NCBI GenBank assembly: GCA_016177845.1
Contig: JACOUO010000024.1
Coordinates: forward strand, 1 to 56,573
DNA: 56,573 nt
Reading direction: 5' to 3'
Origin: Deltaproteobacteria bacterium
GTDB taxonomy: Bacteria; Desulfobacterota; GWC2-55-46
Below are positions 7,514-24,751 of this stretch, piece by piece. The position numbers and the translations under genes were made by a program. Numbering within the stretch: the stretch's first letter is position 1; each line of letters starts with the position of its first letter. The notes beneath the pieces are model-generated. The model was not told the DNA's origin. It was given only the letters and a program-made list of their open reading frames with translations, and ran no database searches.

Positions 7514-9316
7514 ATGAACGCAAAAGACGAAAAGAAAGAGGCGACAGTGGCGGAACAACTGGCTGCATGCAAGCTTGAGCACAGGGATTTCCGCGTGGCC
7601 ATGCTCAGCGTCCTGGAGGACCTGAACGAGACCACCGAGGAACTCAAGAAGCTTTCGATGGCTATCGAGCAGAGCGTAAGCATCATATCCATAACCGACA
7701 GGGGCGGGAAAATAGAATACATAAACCCTATTTTCGACGAGAAAACCGGATATTCAAAGGAAGAGGCGATAGGCCGGCAGTCCAGAGAGCTTATGTTTGG
7801 CGAGATAGTCGATGAACGGTATGAAGAGCTTCTTGCCACTGTTCTTTCGGGAACGATATGGCGTGGAATGGTCAAAAACAAGAGAAAGACGGGTGGATAT
7901 TACTGGTGCAACACCGATGTCAGTCCGATAAAGAATGAAAGCGGCGAGATAACGCATTTTCTGATCAGCCAGGAAGATATAACCGAAAGGATCCGTTCGG
8001 AAGAGCGCTTCCAGCATCTTTCCAGGTACGACCCGCTCACGGGCCTTTTGAACCGTTCCTGTTTTATGAAATCGATGAGTGAATGGATGGACTCCTCCGA
8101 AAAGCCGGGCGACACAGGCGTCCTGCTCTTATCCGACATGGATCAGTTCAAATTTTTCAACGAGACATACGGACACGGCACCGGAGATTATATTTTGAAA
8201 AATATGGCAAATCTTATTAACGATGTCGTTGAACGGGCATATGGCGAAGATATCATGACCGGCGCGCAGAAGCCTTTCATCGGAAGGATCGGCGGTGACG
8301 AGTTCGCGGTATTCCTGCCTTTGGTCAATGGAAGCCAGGGCATGCGGATAGCAGAAATTATCAGACAGGCTGTTGAGGGGTTCAATTTCGAGGAAACGGA
8401 TATTTCTATAACTATAAGCATAGGCGTTGCCCGCTATCCTGAGCATGGGATGGAGATTAAAGAGCTTTTGACAAAGGCCGATGCCGCCAGGTATCGGGCC
8501 AAAGAGCTGGGACGCAACAGATGCCACCTTTACCGCTCCGAGGATCAGGACCTCGATAAGGCGCACTCAAAACTCCAATGGAAGGAGAAGATACTGAAAG
8601 CGTTGAAAGGCAACCGCTTCGAGCCCTGGTTTCAGCCAATATTAGATATTAAAGCGAATTGCGTAAGCCATTACGAAGTCCTTGCGAGGATGATTGAAGA
8701 GGATGGAAGCGTGATACTGCCCGCCTCATTCGTAGATGTGGCCGAGTGGTTCGGGCTTATTACTTCGATAGACAGGGTTATTATTGAAAAAGCCCTCAAT
8801 TATCAGGTGCAACTCGGTGCGGCTATCTGTTTAAGCATAAACCTTTCGGGAAAAGATATGGGGGATGAGGAATTGCTTTCTTTCCTGAAGTCAAAGATAT
8901 CTGAGGCAGGCGCTGACCCGCGCCGAGTTATTTTTGAGATAACTGAAACAGCCGCAATATCCAACCTTGAACTGGCCGTAAATTTCGTAAAGGCATTAAA
9001 TTCCATAGGGTGCAAGTTTGCACTCGATGATTTTGGCGTAGGCTTCACGTCATTTACTTATTTAAAGAAACTTATGGTTGATTACATAAAAATAGACGGC
9101 GCATTCATACGCAGATTGCATGAGAACGCAGACGACCAGGTCTTCGTAAAGGCGATGATAGACGTGGCAAGGGGGCTTAACATAAAAACTATCGCTGAAT
9201 TTGTTGAACAGGAAGAGGTGCTTAAGGTTCTGAAAAGGTACGGAGGGGATTACGCACAGGGGTATTTTATCGGAAAACCCGCTCCCTTTTCAGAAATAGT
9301 CAAAAAAGTACAATAA
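7514..9316 (+). CDS. PAS-GGDEF-EAL cyclic-di-GMP enzyme
   Basis: 600-residue bifunctional c-di-GMP protein. A coiled coil leads to PAS (about 45-160), then GGDEF with intact signature RIGGDEF at 260-264, then EAL. In the EAL domain the first motif reads EVL (Glu388), which keeps the catalytic Glu; the other expected motifs SINLSG, FEITET, LDDFGVGF, IKIDGAF, AEFVEQEE and AQGYF are all present, so phosphodiesterase activity is plausible. No RxxD inhibitory site is visible upstream of GGDEF. No membrane segment, so it is cytoplasmic. Last intact gene before the integrase remnant; the che genes and this gene run in one direction with short gaps. Confidence 0.92.
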   Translation: MNAKDEKKEATVAEQLAACKLEHRDFRVAMLSVLEDLNETTEELKKLSMAIEQSVSIISITDRGGKIEYINPIFDEKTGYSKEEAIGRQSRELMFGEIVDERYEELLATVLSGTIWRGMVKNKRKTGGYYWCNTDVSPIKNESGEITHFLISQEDITERIRSEERFQHLSRYDPLTGLLNRSCFMKSMSEWMDSSEKPGDTGVLLLSDMDQFKFFNETYGHGTGDYILKNMANLINDVVERAYGEDIMTGAQKPFIGRIGGDEFAVFLPLVNGSQGMRIAEIIRQAVEGFNFEETDISITISIGVARYPEHGMEIKELLTKADAARYRAKELGRNRCHLYRSEDQDLDKAHSKLQWKEKILKALKGNRFEPWFQPILDIKANCVSHYEVLARMIEEDGSVILPASFVDVAEWFGLITSIDRVIIEKALNYQVQLGAAICLSINLSGKDMGDEELLSFLKSKISEAGADPRRVIFEITETAAISNLELAVNFVKALNSIGCKFALDDFGVGFTSFTYLKKLMVDYIKIDGAFIRRLHENADDQVFVKAMIDVARGLNIKTIAEFVEQEEVLKVLKRYGGDYAQGYFIGKPAPFSEIVKKVQ

Positions 9317-17480: not shown

Positions 17481-19223
17481 TTGCATTCTTCTATCCTTAA
17501 TAAGCGGATATTCATAATAATCATAGCCGTAACTGCTTTCCTCACATTCCTGAATACGACCTATAACGGCTTTGTAATCGATGATCATTTCCTTATAGAA
17601 AAAAACCCGCTTATTAGCAGTTTCGGTAATCTCCTTGATATATTCACCTCTGATGTCCATGCGTTTAAGACAGAAAACCCTGTAACCGATTATTACCGTC
17701 CGCTCCTTTTTACAGTATATACCTTTGAGTACCTCCTTTTCGGGCTTCAGCCCTGGGGCTGGCATCTCTTCAATGTCATCTTTCATGTTGTAAACAGTAT
17801 CCTTGTCTTTTTGATAGCGTGGCGGATTTTTGGGGAGGCCGGAGATAAAGAAAAAAGCAACGGCGTATTTGCGCTTATAGCCGGCCTGATATTCGCTGTC
17901 CATCCGATAAGCGCTGAGCCTGTTTCATGGCTTGCGTGCGTCTGCGAGCTGTCTTATACCCTGTTTTCGCTTTTGGCTCTGTACCTGTTCATGCTCTCTT
18001 CAGGTGACGCAGGCCAAACGAGCGGCAAGCGGTTTACGCTCAAGGCATTATCCGTTTTTTCATTTTTGCTTGCGGCATTTTCCAAGGAGACCGCCTTGGT
18101 GCTGCCCGGCGTCCTGATAGCCTATGACCTTGCGAGAGGCAATAGGCCGGGCTTACGGATGCTAAAATCGCACAGCCCTTTTTGGGTGGCTGCCATCGTT
18201 TACTTGGCGCTTCGGTTCAACGCTCTCCATGCAGTCGCATTCCCCGGTAACCTTGACCACTCTCTTTTTTATTATATTTCAAGCGCGGCATATCTCTATT
18301 CAAACTACATCTTTCTTTTCCTGTTTCCCTTGGATTTAAACCTCTACCATGTAGTGCCGGTATTTTCGGGTTTTTCAGCGGGTCTTCTATTAAATTTTGC
18401 GGTAGTTATAATTGCGTTTATTCTCATGCTGTACGCAGGAAGAAAGAGGCCGGTTGTGGCCTTTTTCGCTTCGATTATGATTTTACCGATACTGCCCACA
18501 CTCTATCTGCTCGCCAAAGACCTTAATATCTACTATATAAATATCATGGCTGAAAGGTACCTGTATTTTCCTCTGGCAGGTTTCTCCCTTCTTGCCGCTT
18601 TCTGCTTAAGCCGCTTATCCGTTAAATTCAACAATACAGCTCTTGTGCTTGTACCGGTATTTATTGTCATTGCAGTTGGCGCGGCGGCCTCGGTAAAAAG
18701 GAACGCGGACTGGAAAGATGAATTTACGATTTCAAAGGCAACCCTGAAGACAGACCCGTCCAACTTCTTTGGCCATTATCTGCTGGCTGAGGTATATGCA
18801 GCAAAAGGCGAGCACGATGAAGCTATAAGGGAGTATGGCGAATCAATAAAGAGCAAGCCGTCTTTTTCAGGTTCCCATCACAGGCTGGGGCTCTTGTATT
18901 ATTCGCTTAACAGGTTGGAAGAGGCAGAGGGTGAATTCAGGGAAGTGCTTAAGGTGAACCCCCGCAACAGTGACGCTTATTATAATATTGCGCTTATCAA
19001 TATGGATAGGGGCAGGTGGACAGAGGCTATTGTCGGCCTTGAAAAGGCGCTTACGCTTGGCAAGGGCGCAAGAATACTTCGGATAAGGAATAATCTGGCT
19101 GTTTCTTATGCAAAACTCGGCAACTTGGAAGAGACGAGAAGGCAGCTCTTATTGGCCAAACAGCAAGACCCCAACGACGCTGAAACCCTAAATAACCTCC
19201 GCTATCTTTCAGAGCAAAAATAG
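17481..19223 (+). CDS. GT-C-like multi-pass membrane protein with C-terminal TPRs (TMTC-like)
   Basis: 580 residues. About ten or more membrane helices (residues 9-395) followed by tetratricopeptide repeats (about 410-575, units such as AEVYAAKGEHDEAIREY and GLLYYSLNRLEEAEGEF). The first extracytoplasmic loop has Asp-Asp in GFVIDDHFLIEKNP and then YYRPLLFTVYTFEYLLFG, the pattern of TMTC/DUF1736-type proteins, a group of GT-C glycosyltransferases using lipid-linked sugars. Donor and acceptor are unknown. The start is a TTG at 17481 with GGAAGGG about ten bases upstream. It lies between a terminator and the promoter of the HEAT-GT2 operon. Confidence 0.75.
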   Translation: MHSSILNKRIFIIIIAVTAFLTFLNTTYNGFVIDDHFLIEKNPLISSFGNLLDIFTSDVHAFKTENPVTDYYRPLLFTVYTFEYLLFGLQPWGWHLFNVIFHVVNSILVFLIAWRIFGEAGDKEKSNGVFALIAGLIFAVHPISAEPVSWLACVCELSYTLFSLLALYLFMLSSGDAGQTSGKRFTLKALSVFSFLLAAFSKETALVLPGVLIAYDLARGNRPGLRMLKSHSPFWVAAIVYLALRFNALHAVAFPGNLDHSLFYYISSAAYLYSNYIFLFLFPLDLNLYHVVPVFSGFSAGLLLNFAVVIIAFILMLYAGRKRPVVAFFASIMILPILPTLYLLAKDLNIYYINIMAERYLYFPLAGFSLLAAFCLSRLSVKFNNTALVLVPVFIVIAVGAAASVKRNADWKDEFTISKATLKTDPSNFFGHYLLAEVYAAKGEHDEAIREYGESIKSKPSFSGSHHRLGLLYYSLNRLEEAEGEFREVLKVNPRNSDAYYNIALINMDRGRWTEAIVGLEKALTLGKGARILRIRNNLAVSYAKLGNLEETRRQLLLAKQQDPNDAETLNNLRYLSEQK

Positions 19224-19397: not shown

Positions 19398-19426
19398 TTG
19401 ATTTATATAAGAAAAACAAATATAAT
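19398..19426 (+). promoter_or_regulatory. Strong sigma70-type promoter for the HEAT-GT2 operon
   Basis: TTGATT (19398-19403), 17-base spacer, TATAAT (19421-19426), in a very AT-rich 260-base spacer. The expected transcript start near 19433 gives a leader of about 50 bases before the GTG at 19486. Confidence 0.6.
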
Positions 19427-19485
19427 TCAGGTACAAACATCTTTGTTCTTTTTAAAATAAATTTGCGTCAAGAGCAGGATTTCCC

Positions 19486-20835
19486 GTGGCAAGCCTCATT
19501 ATAAAGTTAATCATCTGGACGATCCTCTTTCTTATCTTCTTTACTTTCATCGCTGTCCTCATCAGAAGATTCTACATGAACAGGAAATACAGGCTCCTTG
19601 ACATTGAGAGGGACAAGGTCGCCCCATTTCTTGCCTGTCTTTCGGATGGCCTCAGAATAGATGACATACAGCGCTACAGAAGGAAAGAGGGCTCAAGCGG
19701 CTGGGTTGCAGTGGAAGAGGCAATGTTTAAAGCCTTGGAGAGCCCTAACGCCTTGAGGCAGGAGATATTCAGGTATTTCGATGAGCTTGGCTATATCGAG
19801 AGCTATATAACAACCCTGTACAGGGGGAATAAATTCGCCCAGGCGCTCGCCGCTGATAAGCTGGGCAGGATAAAATGCATAAAGGCTCTGCCCCACCTGA
19901 TTTTTGCCCTTAAAGGGGTTCATAAAGACATAAGGAACATGGCGGTATATGCCTTGGGCGTTATTAATCACGAAGATGCCATACCGCACCTGATAGAAAG
20001 GCTTCGGAGCGCGGCTTTAACGGATGAAGAGGTCTCAATAAGGATTGTCAAATCATCTCTTATCTCTTTTGGAGAGGCCGTCATACCAAAGCTTTTGCCT
20101 GAAATTAGAAACCAGTCATGGAGAATAAGGTCGGCTGCCGCTGACATATTGGCCGAGCTTCGCCCGAAGACTCCGATAATCGCGGAGGCGTTCATGGATG
20201 CCTTGTCAGACCCTGAGCAGGACATGAGGGCAAAGGCTGCCAAGGGGCTTGGCAAATTAAGGTATTGGCCTGCGATAGACAGGCTGAAGGAGCTTCTTCA
20301 AGACCCTTTTTGGGTTGTGCGCCTGCATGCGGCGCGCGCACTCGGACTTATCGGGGACCCTGTTGTCATAGACAGCCTCAGGGAGATGCTCAAGGACAAG
20401 AACTGGCAGGTGAGGAAATCCGCGGCAGAGGCGCTTGGAAAGATAGGGGGCAGGGCATATATAGTGCTCCTTCAGGTCTACCTATACAGCAATGACAGGT
20501 ACGCCACTGAGCAGGTAGCCGATGAAATGGAGCGCATGGGTATAATCAAGGAATTTCTGAACTGGCTCCTTAAAAAGGAAAAGCCGGTATCTTTGGATTC
20601 AGGCGATATCAATAAAGAAGCCTTGGAGCATCAAAGAAATAATTTCAGCGAAGAAGTTTTCAGGTCGATTGCTTATGAGCTTAACTACTTCGGGATTCAA
20701 AGGCATAAAGAGGTGATGGGGCCTCTTGCCGGCCCTGAGTTTAGCCCTGAAGAGATTGATAATGCAATTGAGGAGCTTGCCAGAATGCCTGAGAGGGAAA
20801 TGCTCGAGTTCGGCGAAAAGTTGATACCTGCGTGA
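19486..20835 (+). CDS. Membrane-anchored HEAT-repeat protein
   Basis: 449 residues. One N-terminal membrane helix (about 5-26), then the basic stretch RRFYMNRKYR, which by the positive-inside rule puts the rest in the cytoplasm. Residues about 95-330 are HEAT repeats (ALAADKLGRIK, NMAVYALGVIN, IRSAAADILAEL, RAKAAKGLGKLR, RLHAARALGLIG, VRKSAAEALGKIG), a scaffold fold. The last 110 residues are helical without a motif I know. The GTG start has CAGGA upstream. Its stop overlaps the start of the glycosyltransferase gene by four bases, so the two are translationally coupled and probably work together, for instance as a synthase scaffold. Confidence 0.82.
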   Translation: MASLIIKLIIWTILFLIFFTFIAVLIRRFYMNRKYRLLDIERDKVAPFLACLSDGLRIDDIQRYRRKEGSSGWVAVEEAMFKALESPNALRQEIFRYFDELGYIESYITTLYRGNKFAQALAADKLGRIKCIKALPHLIFALKGVHKDIRNMAVYALGVINHEDAIPHLIERLRSAALTDEEVSIRIVKSSLISFGEAVIPKLLPEIRNQSWRIRSAAADILAELRPKTPIIAEAFMDALSDPEQDMRAKAAKGLGKLRYWPAIDRLKELLQDPFWVVRLHAARALGLIGDPVVIDSLREMLKDKNWQVRKSAAEALGKIGGRAYIVLLQVYLYSNDRYATEQVADEMERMGIIKEFLNWLLKKEKPVSLDSGDINKEALEHQRNNFSEEVFRSIAYELNYFGIQRHKEVMGPLAGPEFSPEEIDNAIEELARMPEREMLEFGEKLIPA

Positions 20836-22268
20836 TAGAGTCCATCAAACAGTTTGTATTCTGGTTCAACTATGTTGTGCTGGGCTATTACACGGCGGCA
20901 AACTTTGTTTATTTTGTCCTTCTGGTCATGGCTGTCGGGCTGATAATGAACCATCTGCTGAGGCTCAGCTATGGCAAATATCAGGAGTCCATCCACCCTT
21001 CCGTTGCGCCTCCAATAAGCATATTGATAGCGGCTTACAATGAAGAAGCTACTATTGTTGAGAGCATAAGGTCGCTATTCCATCTGAACTATCCTGATTA
21101 CGAGATAATAGTAGTAAATGACGGATCTACGGACTCAACCCTAAAGCGCCTGATAGAAGGCTTCAATCTCAAAAATATAAATATAGTCTATCGGGCTGTC
21201 ATCCCTACCGCATTTGTGAAGGGCTTCTATGTCAATCCTGATATGCCCAAGCTCATTGTCATTGATAAGCTGCACGCAGGCAAGGCTGACTCCCTTAATA
21301 TCGGCATAAATGTCTCAAGGGCACCTTATTTCTGCTCTGTAGACGCGGACTCCATCCTTGAGAAAGACGCGCTGCTTAGGCTGATGCGCCCGATTGTCGA
21401 AGAGCCCGAACTTGTCCAGGCTACAGGCGGCATCGTGAGGCTTGTAAATGGCAGCATCGTAAAAGACGGCAAGCTTGTAAAGGTCCAGTTGCCCAAGGAC
21501 AGCCTTTCCAGGCTTCAGGTCGTTGAATACATAAGAAGCTTCCTCTTCGGAAGGGCGGGCCTTAGCGCCCTTAATTCTCTCCTTGTAATATCAGGCACAT
21601 TCTCCATGTTCAATAAAAGGTCTGTGCAGGAGGCCGGCGGCTATCTGTTGAATACAGTGACTGAGGATATGGAGCTTGTAATCAGACTTCATAAGCACCT
21701 CATTGAGAAGAAAGTAAAATATCATATCAACTTTGTGCCTGACCCGATATGCTGGACAGAGGCGCCCAAAGACCTCGCAACTCTCAGGAGGCAGAGGCGA
21801 AGGTGGCACCTGGGGCTTGCCGAATCAATATACATATACAGGCAGATGCTCTTTAACCGCAAATACAAATGGATCGGTTTTTTTGCGCTTCCGTACCAAT
21901 TGTTGGTAGAGCTGATAGGCCCTGCCATAGAAATATTGGGATATTTCGTAGTTACTTTTTCTTTCTTTTTTGAAATAATTAATTTTAAATTTTTCATGCT
22001 GTTCCTTACCATGGCCCTTCTTGTAGGCGTATTTTTCTCAACCGCGGCGATACTGCTTGAAGAGATGAGCTACAGGAGGTATCCGAGATTAAAGGACCTT
22101 CTTATTCTGCTTGCGTATGGCGTTATCGAGAACTTCGGGTACAGGCAGCTTCTTGCGCTCTGGAGGACTGAGGCGATAATCCAGTTCCTGTTCACAAAGG
22201 AGAAGAAGTGGGAAGTGGTGCAGAAGAAGGGTTTTGACGCTTCACCCGCTTCTAAAAAAGACGGTTAA
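20832..22268 (+). CDS. Processive family 2 glycosyltransferase (PgaC/BcsA-like polysaccharide synthase)
   Basis: 478 residues. An N-terminal membrane segment (about 15-42), cytoplasmic GT-A domain, and several C-terminal helices (about 345-415). The GT2 synthase motifs are in order: NDGSTD (96-101), DAD (171-173), TED (277-279) and Q-x-x-R-W (321-325), the set of processive inner-membrane synthases for cellulose, PNAG and hyaluronan. KLHAGKADSLN is the expected acceptor-side loop. GTG start overlapping the HEAT gene stop. With the TPR/barrel protein next, the product is probably an exported beta-linked polysaccharide; the sugar is unknown. No deacetylase or PilZ domain gene is beside it. Confidence 0.88.
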   Translation: MIESIKQFVFWFNYVVLGYYTAANFVYFVLLVMAVGLIMNHLLRLSYGKYQESIHPSVAPPISILIAAYNEEATIVESIRSLFHLNYPDYEIIVVNDGSTDSTLKRLIEGFNLKNINIVYRAVIPTAFVKGFYVNPDMPKLIVIDKLHAGKADSLNIGINVSRAPYFCSVDADSILEKDALLRLMRPIVEEPELVQATGGIVRLVNGSIVKDGKLVKVQLPKDSLSRLQVVEYIRSFLFGRAGLSALNSLLVISGTFSMFNKRSVQEAGGYLLNTVTEDMELVIRLHKHLIEKKVKYHINFVPDPICWTEAPKDLATLRRQRRRWHLGLAESIYIYRQMLFNRKYKWIGFFALPYQLLVELIGPAIEILGYFVVTFSFFFEIINFKFFMLFLTMALLVGVFFSTAAILLEEMSYRRYPRLKDLLILLAYGVIENFGYRQLLALWRTEAIIQFLFTKEKKWEVVQKKGFDASPASKKDG

Positions 22269-22337
22269 AAAATCTTTTTTGAGCTAAAACAGGTTTTTAT
22301 ATTAATATAGATACGAAAAATCAGAAGGCAGGTTGTG

Positions 22338-23873
22338 ATGAAGAGGTTAATTTTAGCGTTGTTGCTTTGTATGCCGGTATGCTCTTTTGCCGCCGGTGAA
22401 GCGGAAGTCCCAAAAGAAGCGCAAATCTCAGTTGATAAGTCTGAGAGCGCGAAGGCGATTAAAAAGACAGGAGATGAGCTTGCCGCAAAAGGGGATTATA
22501 AAAAGGCAACTGAGGAGTATCTAAAAGCCCTGTCTCTTTCAAGAGAGTCTTTTACGACAGATGAACGGGCGCAGATGGCCATGTATATGTCATGGGCAGG
22601 CAGTTACAATGAATCGATTTTTGAGCTTAAGAAAGTTATAGAGGAAAACCCTAAAGACCTGCAGGCAAGAGTACACCTTGCCAGAGTCCTTTCATGGACA
22701 GGCAATCTTGATGACTCATTAAAAGAGTCCGGGGCCGTTCTCTCTGAGCATCCGGGCAACAAAGAGGCGATGACAGTGCAGGCAAACGCCTTGAGGTGGA
22801 AAGGCAAGACAGGCGAGGCAGTCAAAATATACGAGAAGATAATGGAAGGCGGAGAGGATTTTGAGGCACGGGTAGGGCTTACATACGCCATGCTCTCAAT
22901 CGGTGACAGGAAGGCCGCGCGCGAGAACAGAGACCGTGTAAAGCCGCTTTACCCGTATCAGGAGAAGGACTACCGTGATTTGAAAGAGGCGGTTGACGCG
23001 GCTACAAGGCCAACTTTTGACGCCAAGGCAAGCTACTACAACGATACTGATTTCAATCAGGTAAACAGGCTTCTATTTTCATCCGGTTTCTGGATTAATA
23101 ACTGGAAGGCTGATTTGAAATACGCCAGAACATACGCGCAGGATAAGACAAGGAACAATGATGCAGAGGCAATATTTTTTAACGGCTATTCAAAATTCAC
23201 TGATAAATTCGGGGCAGGTGCAGGAGTTGGGCTTAATCTCATAGGCAACAGGGAAGGCACAGCTTTTCTTTCAGGCCATGTAAAGGCAGACCTGAAGGCC
23301 AAGTACGCTGACTTTGGAGCAAGCCTCTCAAGAGATGTGCTGACTGACACTGCCCAGTTGATAGAGAACGCGATAAGGGCTACTAACTACGGTTTTTTTG
23401 CTTCAAGGAAGTTTAATGACAGGTACAGCCTCAGCGGAAACCTGACCTACAGGGATTACTCCGATGACAATAGCGCGATAGATTTTCAGATTTCTCCCCT
23501 TTATTCCGTCATGTTGAAAAACCCGACTGTCGCAGTCGGCTACAGTTTCAGATACCTTGGCTTTGAAAGGCAGAGCCGAGGCGGCTACTATGACCCGGAC
23601 AGCTATTTTGCACACAAGCTTTTCTCTGTCATCTCGTACGATAAGGGCAGGTTCTACACATATCTTGAGCCTTACATAGGTTATCAGTCCGCTACCCGTT
23701 TCGGCAGCGATAGCGGTGATATCTTCAGCGGAGGCGCAGCGATTGCAGGATACAAAATAAAAAAGAACGCCTCTTTTGAGGTCAACGCAGAGGGCGGCAA
23801 TTCTGCCGTAGGCACAGCCGCAGGCTTCAGGTATTACATCCTGGGGATGAAGTTGGTCTGTACCACATTTTAG
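22338..23873 (+). CDS. TPR plus outer-membrane beta-barrel protein (YaiO-like, PgaA/BcsC-like role)
   Basis: About 511 residues. A signal peptide (MKRLILALLLCMPVCSFA) is followed by TPRs (about 25-215, for example ELAAKGDYKKATEEYLKAL and RVLSWTGNLDDSLKES) and a barrel-like C-terminal half (about 225-511) of alternating aromatic/polar strands, with FFASRKFNDRYSLSGNLTY near the YaiO barrel pattern and a C-terminal Phe typical of Bam substrates. The TPR-then-barrel plan is that of PgaA and BcsC, which pass polysaccharide across the outer membrane; this barrel half is somewhat short for that. I prefer ATG 22338 to the GTG three bases earlier. Confidence 0.8.
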   Translation: MKRLILALLLCMPVCSFAAGEAEVPKEAQISVDKSESAKAIKKTGDELAAKGDYKKATEEYLKALSLSRESFTTDERAQMAMYMSWAGSYNESIFELKKVIEENPKDLQARVHLARVLSWTGNLDDSLKESGAVLSEHPGNKEAMTVQANALRWKGKTGEAVKIYEKIMEGGEDFEARVGLTYAMLSIGDRKAARENRDRVKPLYPYQEKDYRDLKEAVDAATRPTFDAKASYYNDTDFNQVNRLLFSSGFWINNWKADLKYARTYAQDKTRNNDAEAIFFNGYSKFTDKFGAGAGVGLNLIGNREGTAFLSGHVKADLKAKYADFGASLSRDVLTDTAQLIENAIRATNYGFFASRKFNDRYSLSGNLTYRDYSDDNSAIDFQISPLYSVMLKNPTVAVGYSFRYLGFERQSRGGYYDPDSYFAHKLFSVISYDKGRFYTYLEPYIGYQSATRFGSDSGDIFSGGAAIAGYKIKKNASFEVNAEGGNSAVGTAAGFRYYILGMKLVCTTF

Positions 23874-23882
23874 GAGAGCGCA

Positions 23883-24374
23883 ATGAGTACTGAAAAGAAG
23901 ATTTTGCTTTTGGCAGCCGTGCTGATGGGCTTGTTTGCTTACGGCTTTTACAATATTTTTACGCCTGATTCCGGCCCGATAAGTTTTGCAAGGGGCAGCG
24001 TGAGGACTCTTTCAGCCGATGTCATGGTGGGCCCCTACCCGACAGAAGTGGAGATTAAAGAGCTCAAGGCAAAAGGCGTTACGGAGATAATCTGCCTGAT
24101 GGATAACAACAATCCCATAGAAGCGAAGCTTATAGAAGATGAGCAAGCCAGCGCAGGAAAAAACGGGATAGTGTATCTGAATTTTCCGATGAACTTCGCA
24201 GACCTTGAAAACCCGAAAAATATCGAGAGACTCAATGTTGCCTTAAAGCATGTTGCTGATTCAAATGGAAAAAAGATATATGTGCATTGCTACCTCGGAA
24301 GACACAGGGTGGGAATGTTTGAGAAGGCGTTTTTGAAAAATAAAAAATCAGAGAAATCGCCCAAAGAAAAATAA
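23883..24374 (+). CDS. Membrane-anchored Cys-based phosphatase (dual-specificity-like)
   Basis: 163 residues. An N-terminal membrane anchor (about 6-24) with a Lys pair before it implies that the catalytic domain lies outside the inner membrane. The phosphatase P-loop HCYLGRHR gives Cys136-(x)5-Arg142, as in protein tyrosine and dual-specificity phosphatases, and VMVGPYPTEVEIKELKAKGVTEIICL is the typical N-terminal part of that fold. Asp107 is a candidate general acid. Starts nine bases after the barrel gene, so it belongs to the same operon. Substrate unknown; phosphorylated glycan or lipid carrier, or a protein, are possible. Confidence 0.75.
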   Translation: MSTEKKILLLAAVLMGLFAYGFYNIFTPDSGPISFARGSVRTLSADVMVGPYPTEVEIKELKAKGVTEIICLMDNNNPIEAKLIEDEQASAGKNGIVYLNFPMNFADLENPKNIERLNVALKHVADSNGKKIYVHCYLGRHRVGMFEKAFLKNKKSEKSPKEK

Positions 24375-24421: not shown

Positions 24422-24751
24422 ATGAAAAAAGAAAAACTTATTATAAAAATGGATATGTTGGAATTAGAATGTGTTCCTTTACTTAAAGGTAAAATATTCC
24501 ATGTAACAAGTCAACATAGTGCAAAGCAAATTTTAAAAACAGGATTTATAAAATCAAATAAAGATGGCAGCTTAGGCTATAATTTCTCTGAGAATAGCTT
24601 TGGAAGAAAAAAAGGATATGTTTGTCTGTTTGATTTTAGAACGGCTTCTGATGATATTATAAAAAAGTCATTAGAATGTTTCAATTTTTTATCTTTTAGA
24701 AAATATGAAGGAAAGATGGCCTATTTATTTACAAGAATTATATTCTTCTGA
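24422..24751 (+). pseudogene. N-terminal part of a frameshifted, AT-rich gene of unknown function
   Basis: 109 codons, lysine-rich and much poorer in G+C than the flanking genes. The text HVTSQHSAKQILKTGFIK and KKGYVCLFDFRTAS reads as a real protein. It breaks off at KMAYLFTRIIFF where the neighbouring frame (24705-24923) continues, so the two pieces look like one gene of roughly 165 codons split by an indel between about 24705 and 24740. No family recognised. Composition suggests recent transfer into the end of the polysaccharide operon. Confidence 0.55.

What the first reader, a model, noticed from the sequence alone, without database searches (positions are those of the whole stretch)
19398..24374. 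Four-gene operon with the parts of an uncatalogued polysaccharide synthesis and export machine
One promoter (TTGATT-17-TATAAT) precedes a membrane-anchored HEAT-repeat scaffold, a processive GT2 synthase with NDGSTD, DAD, TED and QxxRW (start overlapping the HEAT stop by 4 bases), a signal peptide-TPR-beta-barrel protein and a membrane-anchored Cys-phosphatase predicted to face the periplasm. Synthase-dependent systems such as Pga and Bcs pair a GT2 synthase with a TPR/barrel exporter; the HEAT scaffold and phosphatase in place of PgaB/PgaD or BcsB are not part of the classical sets. The c-di-GMP enzyme and two chemosensory clusters in the window are possible inputs.
Basis: partly seen in the sequence, partly recalled or inferred. 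Interest (0 to 1): 0.65.

Follow-up and report, generated by a model that had tools for sequence, protein, structure and literature searches.

The report
HEAT-partnered sugar-polymer synthesis and export operon
Four neighbouring genes in this uncultured bacterium encode what looks like a complete machine that makes a long sugar polymer inside the cell and pushes it out through both membranes; the core enzyme nearly always travels with a helper protein (a HEAT-repeat protein) that none of the well-studied machines of this kind has.

Summary
In detail: HEAT, GT2, TPR-barrel and phosphatase genes lie in order on one strand, with gaps of -4, 66 and 9 bases. (1) Across 59 related genomes the HEAT and GT2 genes occur in exactly the same 21, adjacent in 20; in a GT2 tree, 42 of 44 loci of the main clade have HEAT upstream. 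(2) The predicted barrel has TPRs plus 16 strands and matches BcsC, PgaA and PelB (Z 29, 28, 26), far above any porin. It is best read as a synthase-dependent polysaccharide secretion system, with a PgaC-like synthase and a HEAT protein in place of PgaD. Corrections: in most distant relatives the downstream genes are a PgaB-like deacetylase plus an 800-residue TPR/TIM-barrel-like protein, and no phosphatase. The two cassettes replace one another, and the window is a hybrid. A relative carries a scar of the whole lost operon. The promoter match is not above chance; the c-di-GMP and chemosensory inputs have no support. Polymer identity, HEAT action and phosphatase substrate are inferred. No paper in the library describes it.

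The parts
19398..19426 (+). possible sigma70-type promoter (TTGATT-17-TATAAT)
   Evidence: 10/12 match, but the number of such sites in the region is not above shuffles; for position
19486..20835 (+). membrane-anchored HEAT-repeat protein (449 aa, GTG start), one N-terminal TM, HEAT domain predicted cytosolic; putative synthase partner
   Evidence: (HEAT_2 3.7e-35)
20832..22268 (+). processive family-2 glycosyltransferase (478 aa), PgaC/IcaA-like synthase core with membrane segments on both sides
   Evidence: (PgaC_IcaA 132 bits, cut-off 422)
22335..23873 (+). outer-membrane exporter: signal peptide, TPR domain, 16-stranded beta-barrel (512 aa)
   Evidence: pLDDT 86.7; BcsC Z 29.0, PgaA Z 27.8, PelB Z 25.6
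23883..24374 (+). membrane-anchored Cys-based PTP/DSP-fold protein predicted to face the periplasm (163 aa)
   Evidence: pLDDT 88.2; DUF442 3gxg Z 14.8

Best explanation
The four genes encode one synthase-dependent exopolysaccharide secretion system. The GT2 protein in the inner membrane polymerises a nucleotide sugar (most likely an N-acetylhexosamine, by likeness to PgaC and by the NodB deacetylase in sister loci) and extrudes the chain through its own membrane segments. The membrane-anchored HEAT protein sits on the cytosolic side and is an obligatory partner of the synthase, taking the place that PgaD has in the Pga system (assembly, stability or switching). The TPR domain of the outer-membrane protein receives the chain in the periplasm and its 16-strand barrel passes it outside. 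The PTP-fold protein, anchored in the inner membrane with its catalytic domain in the periplasm, is an accessory that modifies the polymer, its carrier or the machine, in the position where sister loci have a deacetylase cassette. Shown by computation: gene order, HEAT-GT2 coupling, synthase motifs, exporter fold, PTP fold and P-loop, cassette exchange, loss of the operon as a unit. Inferred: polymer production, sugar identity, HEAT binding to the synthase, phosphatase activity and substrate.
For: Gene order HEAT-GT2-barrel-PTP is conserved in 12 related loci. In 59 related genomes the GT2 set and HEAT set are the same 21 genomes, adjacent in 20; chance of identical sets 2e-16 before allowing for kinship. 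The strong PTP matches lie in 13 of these 21 and in none of the other 38. In a GT2 tree, 42 of 44 rows of the main clade, from at least four phyla, have HEAT directly upstream; the exceptions are a transposase (by eye) in its place and a contig end. The processive-GT2 catalytic motifs are invariant; PgaC is the closest curated family and E. coli PgaC aligns over 273 residues at 27%, probability 99.8 as profile. The barrel model matches BcsC, PgaA (2.0 A over 275 residues) and PelB, with a gap of 7 Z units to the next barrels. Sister loci add a NodB protein alignable with the PgaB deacetylase domain (E 6e-18). One GT2-less relative (G015) keeps only a barrel tail and a broken PTP remnant at the same site; another (G001) has the site without the operon.
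Against: No experiment. GT2 and barrel fail the curated cut-offs for PgaC and PgaA. A Nitrospira subclade of the GT2 family (14 rows) has no HEAT gene next to it, so HEAT is not universal at the edge of the family. The PTP lacks a conserved WPD-type general acid, so it may not be an ordinary phosphatase. No sugar-nucleotide or known polymer-modifying gene lies in the window's operon.
Confidence: 0.77

Rival explanations
1. It is simply a divergent PNAG (Pga) system: the polymer is poly-beta-1,6-GlcNAc, HEAT is a functional PgaD, and deacetylation is done in trans or not at all.
For: PgaC/IcaA is the closest curated family, the barrel matches PgaA at 2.0 A over 275 residues, and sister loci encode a PgaB-like NodB deacetylase.
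Against: GT2 scores 132 bits against a cut-off of 422 and the barrel 47 against 367; no PgaD likeness in HEAT; no PgaB-type deacetylase-hydrolase in the locus; the NodB gene found elsewhere in the own genome sits among LPS-type glycosyltransferases; the extra 800-residue protein has no PgaB likeness.
Confidence: 0.3
2. The PTP-fold protein is regulatory, like periplasmic TpbA of Pseudomonas aeruginosa: it dephosphorylates a periplasmic domain of a signalling protein (for example a diguanylate cyclase) and so tunes output, without touching the polymer.
For: Its predicted fold also matches TpbA (Z 11.7) and it is predicted to face the periplasm; TpbA has been proposed to act on the periplasmic domain of YfiN (PMC2837407). 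A c-di-GMP enzyme lies in the same window.
Against: It follows GT2 directly or next-but-one in widely separated lineages, including a Gram-positive, and is exchanged against a deacetylase cassette, which suggests it works on the machine or its product; no candidate target is linked; the fold match to TpbA is no better than to many DSPs.
Confidence: 0.2
3. The GT2 makes a short or lipid-linked glycan (glycolipid or surface glycoconjugate) rather than a free matrix polysaccharide, and the PTP is a lipid-phosphate or diphosphate phosphatase on that pathway.
For: PAP2-like lipid-phosphatase hits (weak in Rossellomorea) occur in downstream genes of the Rossellomorea and Elusimicrobia loci; a missing general acid is known for a PTP-fold diphosphate phosphatase (PMC9038691); the Gram-positive locus has no exporter.
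Against: A 16-strand TPR exporter of the BcsC/PgaA/PelB kind is expected for a linear polymer; the invariant QxxRW and DxD set is typical of processive synthases.
Confidence: 0.12
4. The four genes are neighbours by chance or by housekeeping operon structure and do not form one machine.
For: The operon sits at a fixed site between unrelated genes (LysM coiled-coil protein upstream; roadblock-like protein and SMC downstream).
Against: Identical presence/absence of HEAT and GT2 in 59 genomes, conservation of adjacency when all flanking genes differ in other phyla, and loss of the operon as one block.
Confidence: 0.02

Closest known systems
Pga (PNAG) system, PgaABCD, Escherichia coli
   Same: GT2 synthase alignable with PgaC (27% over 273 aa); exporter with TPRs and 16-strand barrel of the PgaA fold (Z 27.8); sister loci carry a NodB deacetylase like the PgaB N-terminal domain.
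   Different: No PgaD; a HEAT protein instead. No PgaB in the window; a PTP-fold protein instead. Curated PgaC and PgaA cut-offs not reached.
Bcs cellulose system (BcsA, BcsC)
   Same: GT2 synthase plus TPR-barrel exporter; best fold match of the barrel is BcsC (Z 29.0).
   Different: No PilZ domain on the synthase, no BcsB or BcsZ; CelA profile score 44 against a cut-off of 699.
Pel system (PelB exporter)
   Same: Barrel and C-terminal TPRs match PelB (Z 25.6).
   Different: No Pel synthase parts; the polymerising enzyme here is an integral GT2.
E. coli YaiP-YaiO
   Same: GT2 (YaiP) near a small outer-membrane barrel (YaiO); one distant Sulfuricurvum locus has HEAT-GT2-YaiO barrel (L116).
   Different: YaiP is a more distant GT2 (98.8 probability, E 1e-16); no HEAT, TPR exporter of this type, or PTP in the E. 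coli locus; the window barrel has no hit to the YaiO Pfam model.
Pga-like operons lacking pgaB and pgaD noted in environmental bacteria (PMC7112194)
   Same: The survey reports environmental pga arrangements without detectable pgaB and pgaD.
   Different: No HEAT or phosphatase partner is mentioned in that paper; whether any of those loci belong to this family could not be checked because the figure is not held.
TpbA, periplasmic DSP of Pseudomonas aeruginosa
   Same: PTP/DSP fold facing the periplasm in an exopolysaccharide context (PMC2837407).
   Different: Here the gene is part of a synthase operon and no protein target is known; TpbA, from general knowledge, is not encoded with a synthase.

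Membership tests
Synthase-dependent polysaccharide secretion systems (general kind) | inner-membrane processive GT2 synthase with D, DxD, ED and QxxRW | tested here: met
   All invariant in 18 homologues; membrane segments on both sides of the catalytic domain
Synthase-dependent polysaccharide secretion systems (general kind) | TPR-containing outer-membrane beta-barrel exporter encoded with the synthase | tested here: met
   TPRs plus 16 strands, pLDDT 86.7; BcsC, PgaA, PelB top the fold list
Synthase-dependent polysaccharide secretion systems (general kind) | inner-membrane partner of the synthase (PgaD, BcsB, Alg44 or similar) | tested here: inconclusive
   HEAT protein co-occurs perfectly with GT2 in 59 genomes, but binding was not tested and it does not resemble PgaD
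Synthase-dependent polysaccharide secretion systems (general kind) | secreted polysaccharide product | not testable with these tools
   needs experiment
Pga (PNAG) system | PgaC equivalog | tested here: not met
   TIGR03937 132.2 bits, cut-off 422.3
Pga (PNAG) system | PgaA equivalog | tested here: not met
   TIGR03939 46.7 bits, cut-off 366.65; fold alone matches
Pga (PNAG) system | PgaB deacetylase/hydrolase in the locus | tested here: not met
   absent in the window; only a NodB domain protein in sister loci; nearest own-genome NodB gene lies in an LPS-type cluster
Pga (PNAG) system | PgaD partner | tested here: not met
   HEAT profile against PgaD: probability 1.8
Bcs cellulose system | BcsA with PilZ domain | tested here: not met
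   no PilZ hit in GT2; CelA 44.4 bits, cut-off 699.1
YaiO/YaiP | YaiO barrel domain (PF19413) | tested here: not met
   no hit in the window barrel; present only in distant locus L116
Cys-based PTP/DSP phosphatases | HCX5R P-loop on a PTP fold | tested here: met
   HCYLG[R/K]HR invariant in 12 homologues; fold matches
Cys-based PTP/DSP phosphatases | conserved general-acid Asp in the WPD-like loop | tested here: not met
   no Asp conserved in the corresponding loop across the 12 homologues; some PTP-fold phosphatases also lack it (PMC9038691)
Cys-based PTP/DSP phosphatases | phosphatase activity | not testable with these tools
   needs assay

The most novel reading that the evidence does not exclude
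HEAT-GT2 defines a separate, widespread class of synthase-dependent secretion system, with a fixed HEAT-synthase core and exchangeable envelope modules (a PTP-fold enzyme in one, a deacetylase plus a cytosolic TPR/TIM-barrel-like protein in the other). The PTP-fold enzyme acts in the periplasm on a phosphorylated or diphosphate-linked glycan or lipid, a role not known for this fold in polysaccharide export.
Probability: 0.35. Interest if true: 0.75.

Novelty: new variant of a known kind. Interest (0 to 1): 0.52.

Why it matters
Known polysaccharide synthases of this kind depend on a partner subunit that differs from system to system. A HEAT-repeat partner that shadows the synthase across several phyla would be a new way to build or switch such a machine, and the natural swap of a deacetylase cassette against a phosphatase on the same synthase gives a direct handle on what the periplasmic parts do. 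It also gives a functional annotation to a matrix or capsule locus in Nitrospirota, deltaproteobacterial and Campylobacterota genomes whose parts match only generic domain models.

Tried and rejected
Looking for a PgaB-type protein elsewhere in the own genome: best NodB gene is a 267-aa protein among LPS-type glycosyltransferases, rejected as a partner. Looking for the 800-residue C6 protein in the own genome: only TPR-level hits. Pfam found no family for the TIM-like proteins beside Nitrospira GT2 genes. HEAT gene in L072: not found, a transposase-like frame (recognised by eye) lies in the locus. The promoter was rejected as evidence. Ten literature searches, eight of them on this question, found no paper joining HEAT repeats with a polysaccharide synthase or with YaiO; the library lacks most subscription journals.
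Full report
What is there. Four open frames lie on the + strand in close order: a HEAT-repeat protein with one N-terminal membrane segment (19486-20835), a family-2 glycosyltransferase (20832-22268, start overlapping the previous stop as GTGA), a TPR-barrel protein with a signal-peptide-like start (22335-23873) and a small protein with an N-terminal membrane segment and HCYLGRHR (23883-24374). Pfam and NCBIfam agree on HEAT, GT2 and TPR; the last protein gives only sub-threshold PTP/DSP hits. The catalytic residues of the synthase motifs are invariant in 18 homologues; the T of TED varies. The promoter is present as written, but such sites are no more frequent than in shuffles.

Are the genes a unit? 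The GT2 query found 28 loci in public genomes and 21 of 59 related genomes. Clustering of the neighbours shows HEAT next to GT2 in 27 of 28 loci by tblastn, while the other flanking genes change. In the 59 relatives the genomes with HEAT (E < 1e-40) are exactly the 21 with GT2, adjacent in 20; in G047 about 2.5 kb separate them. The PTP gene (E < 1e-50) is in 13 of these 21 and none of the other 38. Within the family the operon sits at one site, between a LysM coiled-coil gene and roadblock-like/SMC genes. Genome G001 has this site without the operon, and G015 keeps only the tail of the barrel gene and a broken PTP piece there. The operon is thus lost as a block.

How far does it reach? A sampled survey with the GT2 profile found members in 15 of 297 genomes of the own phylum, 46 of 245 Nitrospirota and 4 of 249 Campylobacterota. 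In a GT2 tree 42 of the 44 rows of the main clade have HEAT directly upstream; of the exceptions one has a transposase-like frame in the neighbourhood and the other is cut by a contig end. Outside the main clade HEAT-like genes still precede GT2 in several loci (L052, L075-L077, L095, L100, L107, L116), whereas a Nitrospira subclade of 14 rows lacks it and instead has a TIM-barrel-like gene alongside in the two loci read.

Two cassettes. Downstream of the HEAT-GT2 core there are two arrangements: barrel then PTP (the window, eleven related loci and L045; L049 also has both genes but its frames overlap in this call), or an 800-residue TPR protein of unknown C-terminal fold (C6), a Tat-type NodB deacetylase, then the barrel (nine loci: L038, L044, L046-L048, L050, L051, L053, L054, in Nitrospirota, Campylobacterota, Abyssobacteria, Thermodesulfobacteriota and two deltaproteobacterial genomes). 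No locus or relative genome has both C6 and a strong PTP match. The second cassette is nested inside the clade of the first (L038; L043 and L065 show only its barrel), so exchange has happened within one bacterial family. The window itself is a hybrid: its barrel groups with the second type at 100/100 support (42-47% identity to several of these, about 25% to the first type), yet it has the PTP gene and neither C6 nor NodB; the own genome holds no C6.

The exporter. The model of the window barrel protein (11 sequences, pLDDT 86.7) has an all-helical TPR half and 16 strands. Against solved structures the top matches are BcsC, PgaA and PelB, Z 29.0, 27.8 (2.0 A over 275 residues) and 25.6; the next barrels are at 18.7.

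The synthase and its partner. Among curated families PgaC/IcaA is closest but far below cut-off; E. coli PgaC aligns at 27% over 273 residues and as a profile at 99.8 probability, YaiP at 98.8. HEAT shows no likeness to PgaD. NodB of the sister loci aligns with the PgaB deacetylase domain over 257 columns. Hence a PgaC-like synthase with a new partner, and by inference an N-acetylhexosamine polymer.

The phosphatase. The model (pLDDT 88.2) is a PTP/DSP fold, closest to a DUF442 protein, PFA-DSP1 and others, with TpbA among the matches. Cys136 and Arg142 are invariant, but no Asp is conserved in the WPD-like loop. At least one PTP-fold enzyme without that acid acts on diphosphates (PMC9038691); this makes a diphosphate or activated phosphate substrate a reasonable guess, not more. 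In distant lineages the PTP gene directly follows GT2 (L095, L100, L107, L114, L115), and in Gram-positive Rossellomorea the locus has HEAT, GT2 and a multi-PTP membrane protein but no barrel. So the PTP belongs with the inner-membrane core rather than with the exporter.

Mechanism, with status. Polymerisation and extrusion by GT2: inferred from family and invariant motifs. HEAT as cytosolic partner: inferred from perfect co-occurrence and topology. Periplasmic guidance and export by the TPR barrel: inferred from fold. PTP as periplasmic accessory: inferred from topology, linkage and cassette exchange. Polymer chemistry: a guess.

Known or new? The kind, synthase-dependent secretion, is known. 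The composition is not described in any paper found in the library. A systematic survey noted Pga-like operons lacking pgaB and pgaD in environmental bacteria (PMC7112194) without naming HEAT or phosphatase partners. I rate it a new variant of a known kind.

Noticed in passing
L128 (G015 C22), about 780-1121: A GT2-less relative keeps a scar of the operon: an 81-bp barrel-gene tail and a broken PTP remnant between the LysM and roadblock-like genes.
   Followed up: yes
L038, L044, L046-L048, L050, L051, L053, L054: A family of about 800 aa (N-terminal TPR, TIM-barrel-like middle by eye, no signal peptide) with no Pfam family beyond TPR sits between synthase and deacetylase; a cytosolic place for such a protein in an export system is unexplained.
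   Followed up: partly
L052, 5311-12324: Rossellomorea (Gram-positive) has a HEAT-GT2 pair with a 593-aa membrane protein carrying repeated PTP-like domains, preceded by a 533-aa protein that reads by eye as a receiver/degenerate-GGDEF response regulator.
   Followed up: partly
L116, 3-4133: A second, very divergent Sulfuricurvum locus has HEAT-GT2-YaiO barrel, hinting that HEAT-GT2 pairing extends to YaiO-type exporters.
   Followed up: no
L097, L104, L095, L115: A TIM-barrel-like protein family (motif G(V/I)Q(L/F)DVEPYL) without any Pfam family lies next to GT2 genes in Nitrospira and beside HEAT-GT2-PTP elsewhere.
   Followed up: partly
L047, 12574-14580: The exporter in this Nitrospirota locus carries an extra N-terminal SPOR domain.
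   Followed up: no
17481-19223: Multi-membrane-segment protein with C-terminal TPRs lies just upstream in the window but is absent from this site in the related loci; probably not part of the system.
   Followed up: partly
24422-24751: AT-rich 109-aa open frame between PTP and the roadblock-like gene with no relative in the compared loci and no Pfam family; may not be a gene.
   Followed up: no
7514-9316: PAS-GGDEF-EAL protein (c-di-GMP turnover), about 10 kb from the operon with no evidence of a link.
   Followed up: no
L123 (G021 C1 1207306-1209714): In one relative the C6 protein is encoded about 110 kb away from the HEAT-GT2 locus, in a longer open frame (1423 aa).
   Followed up: no
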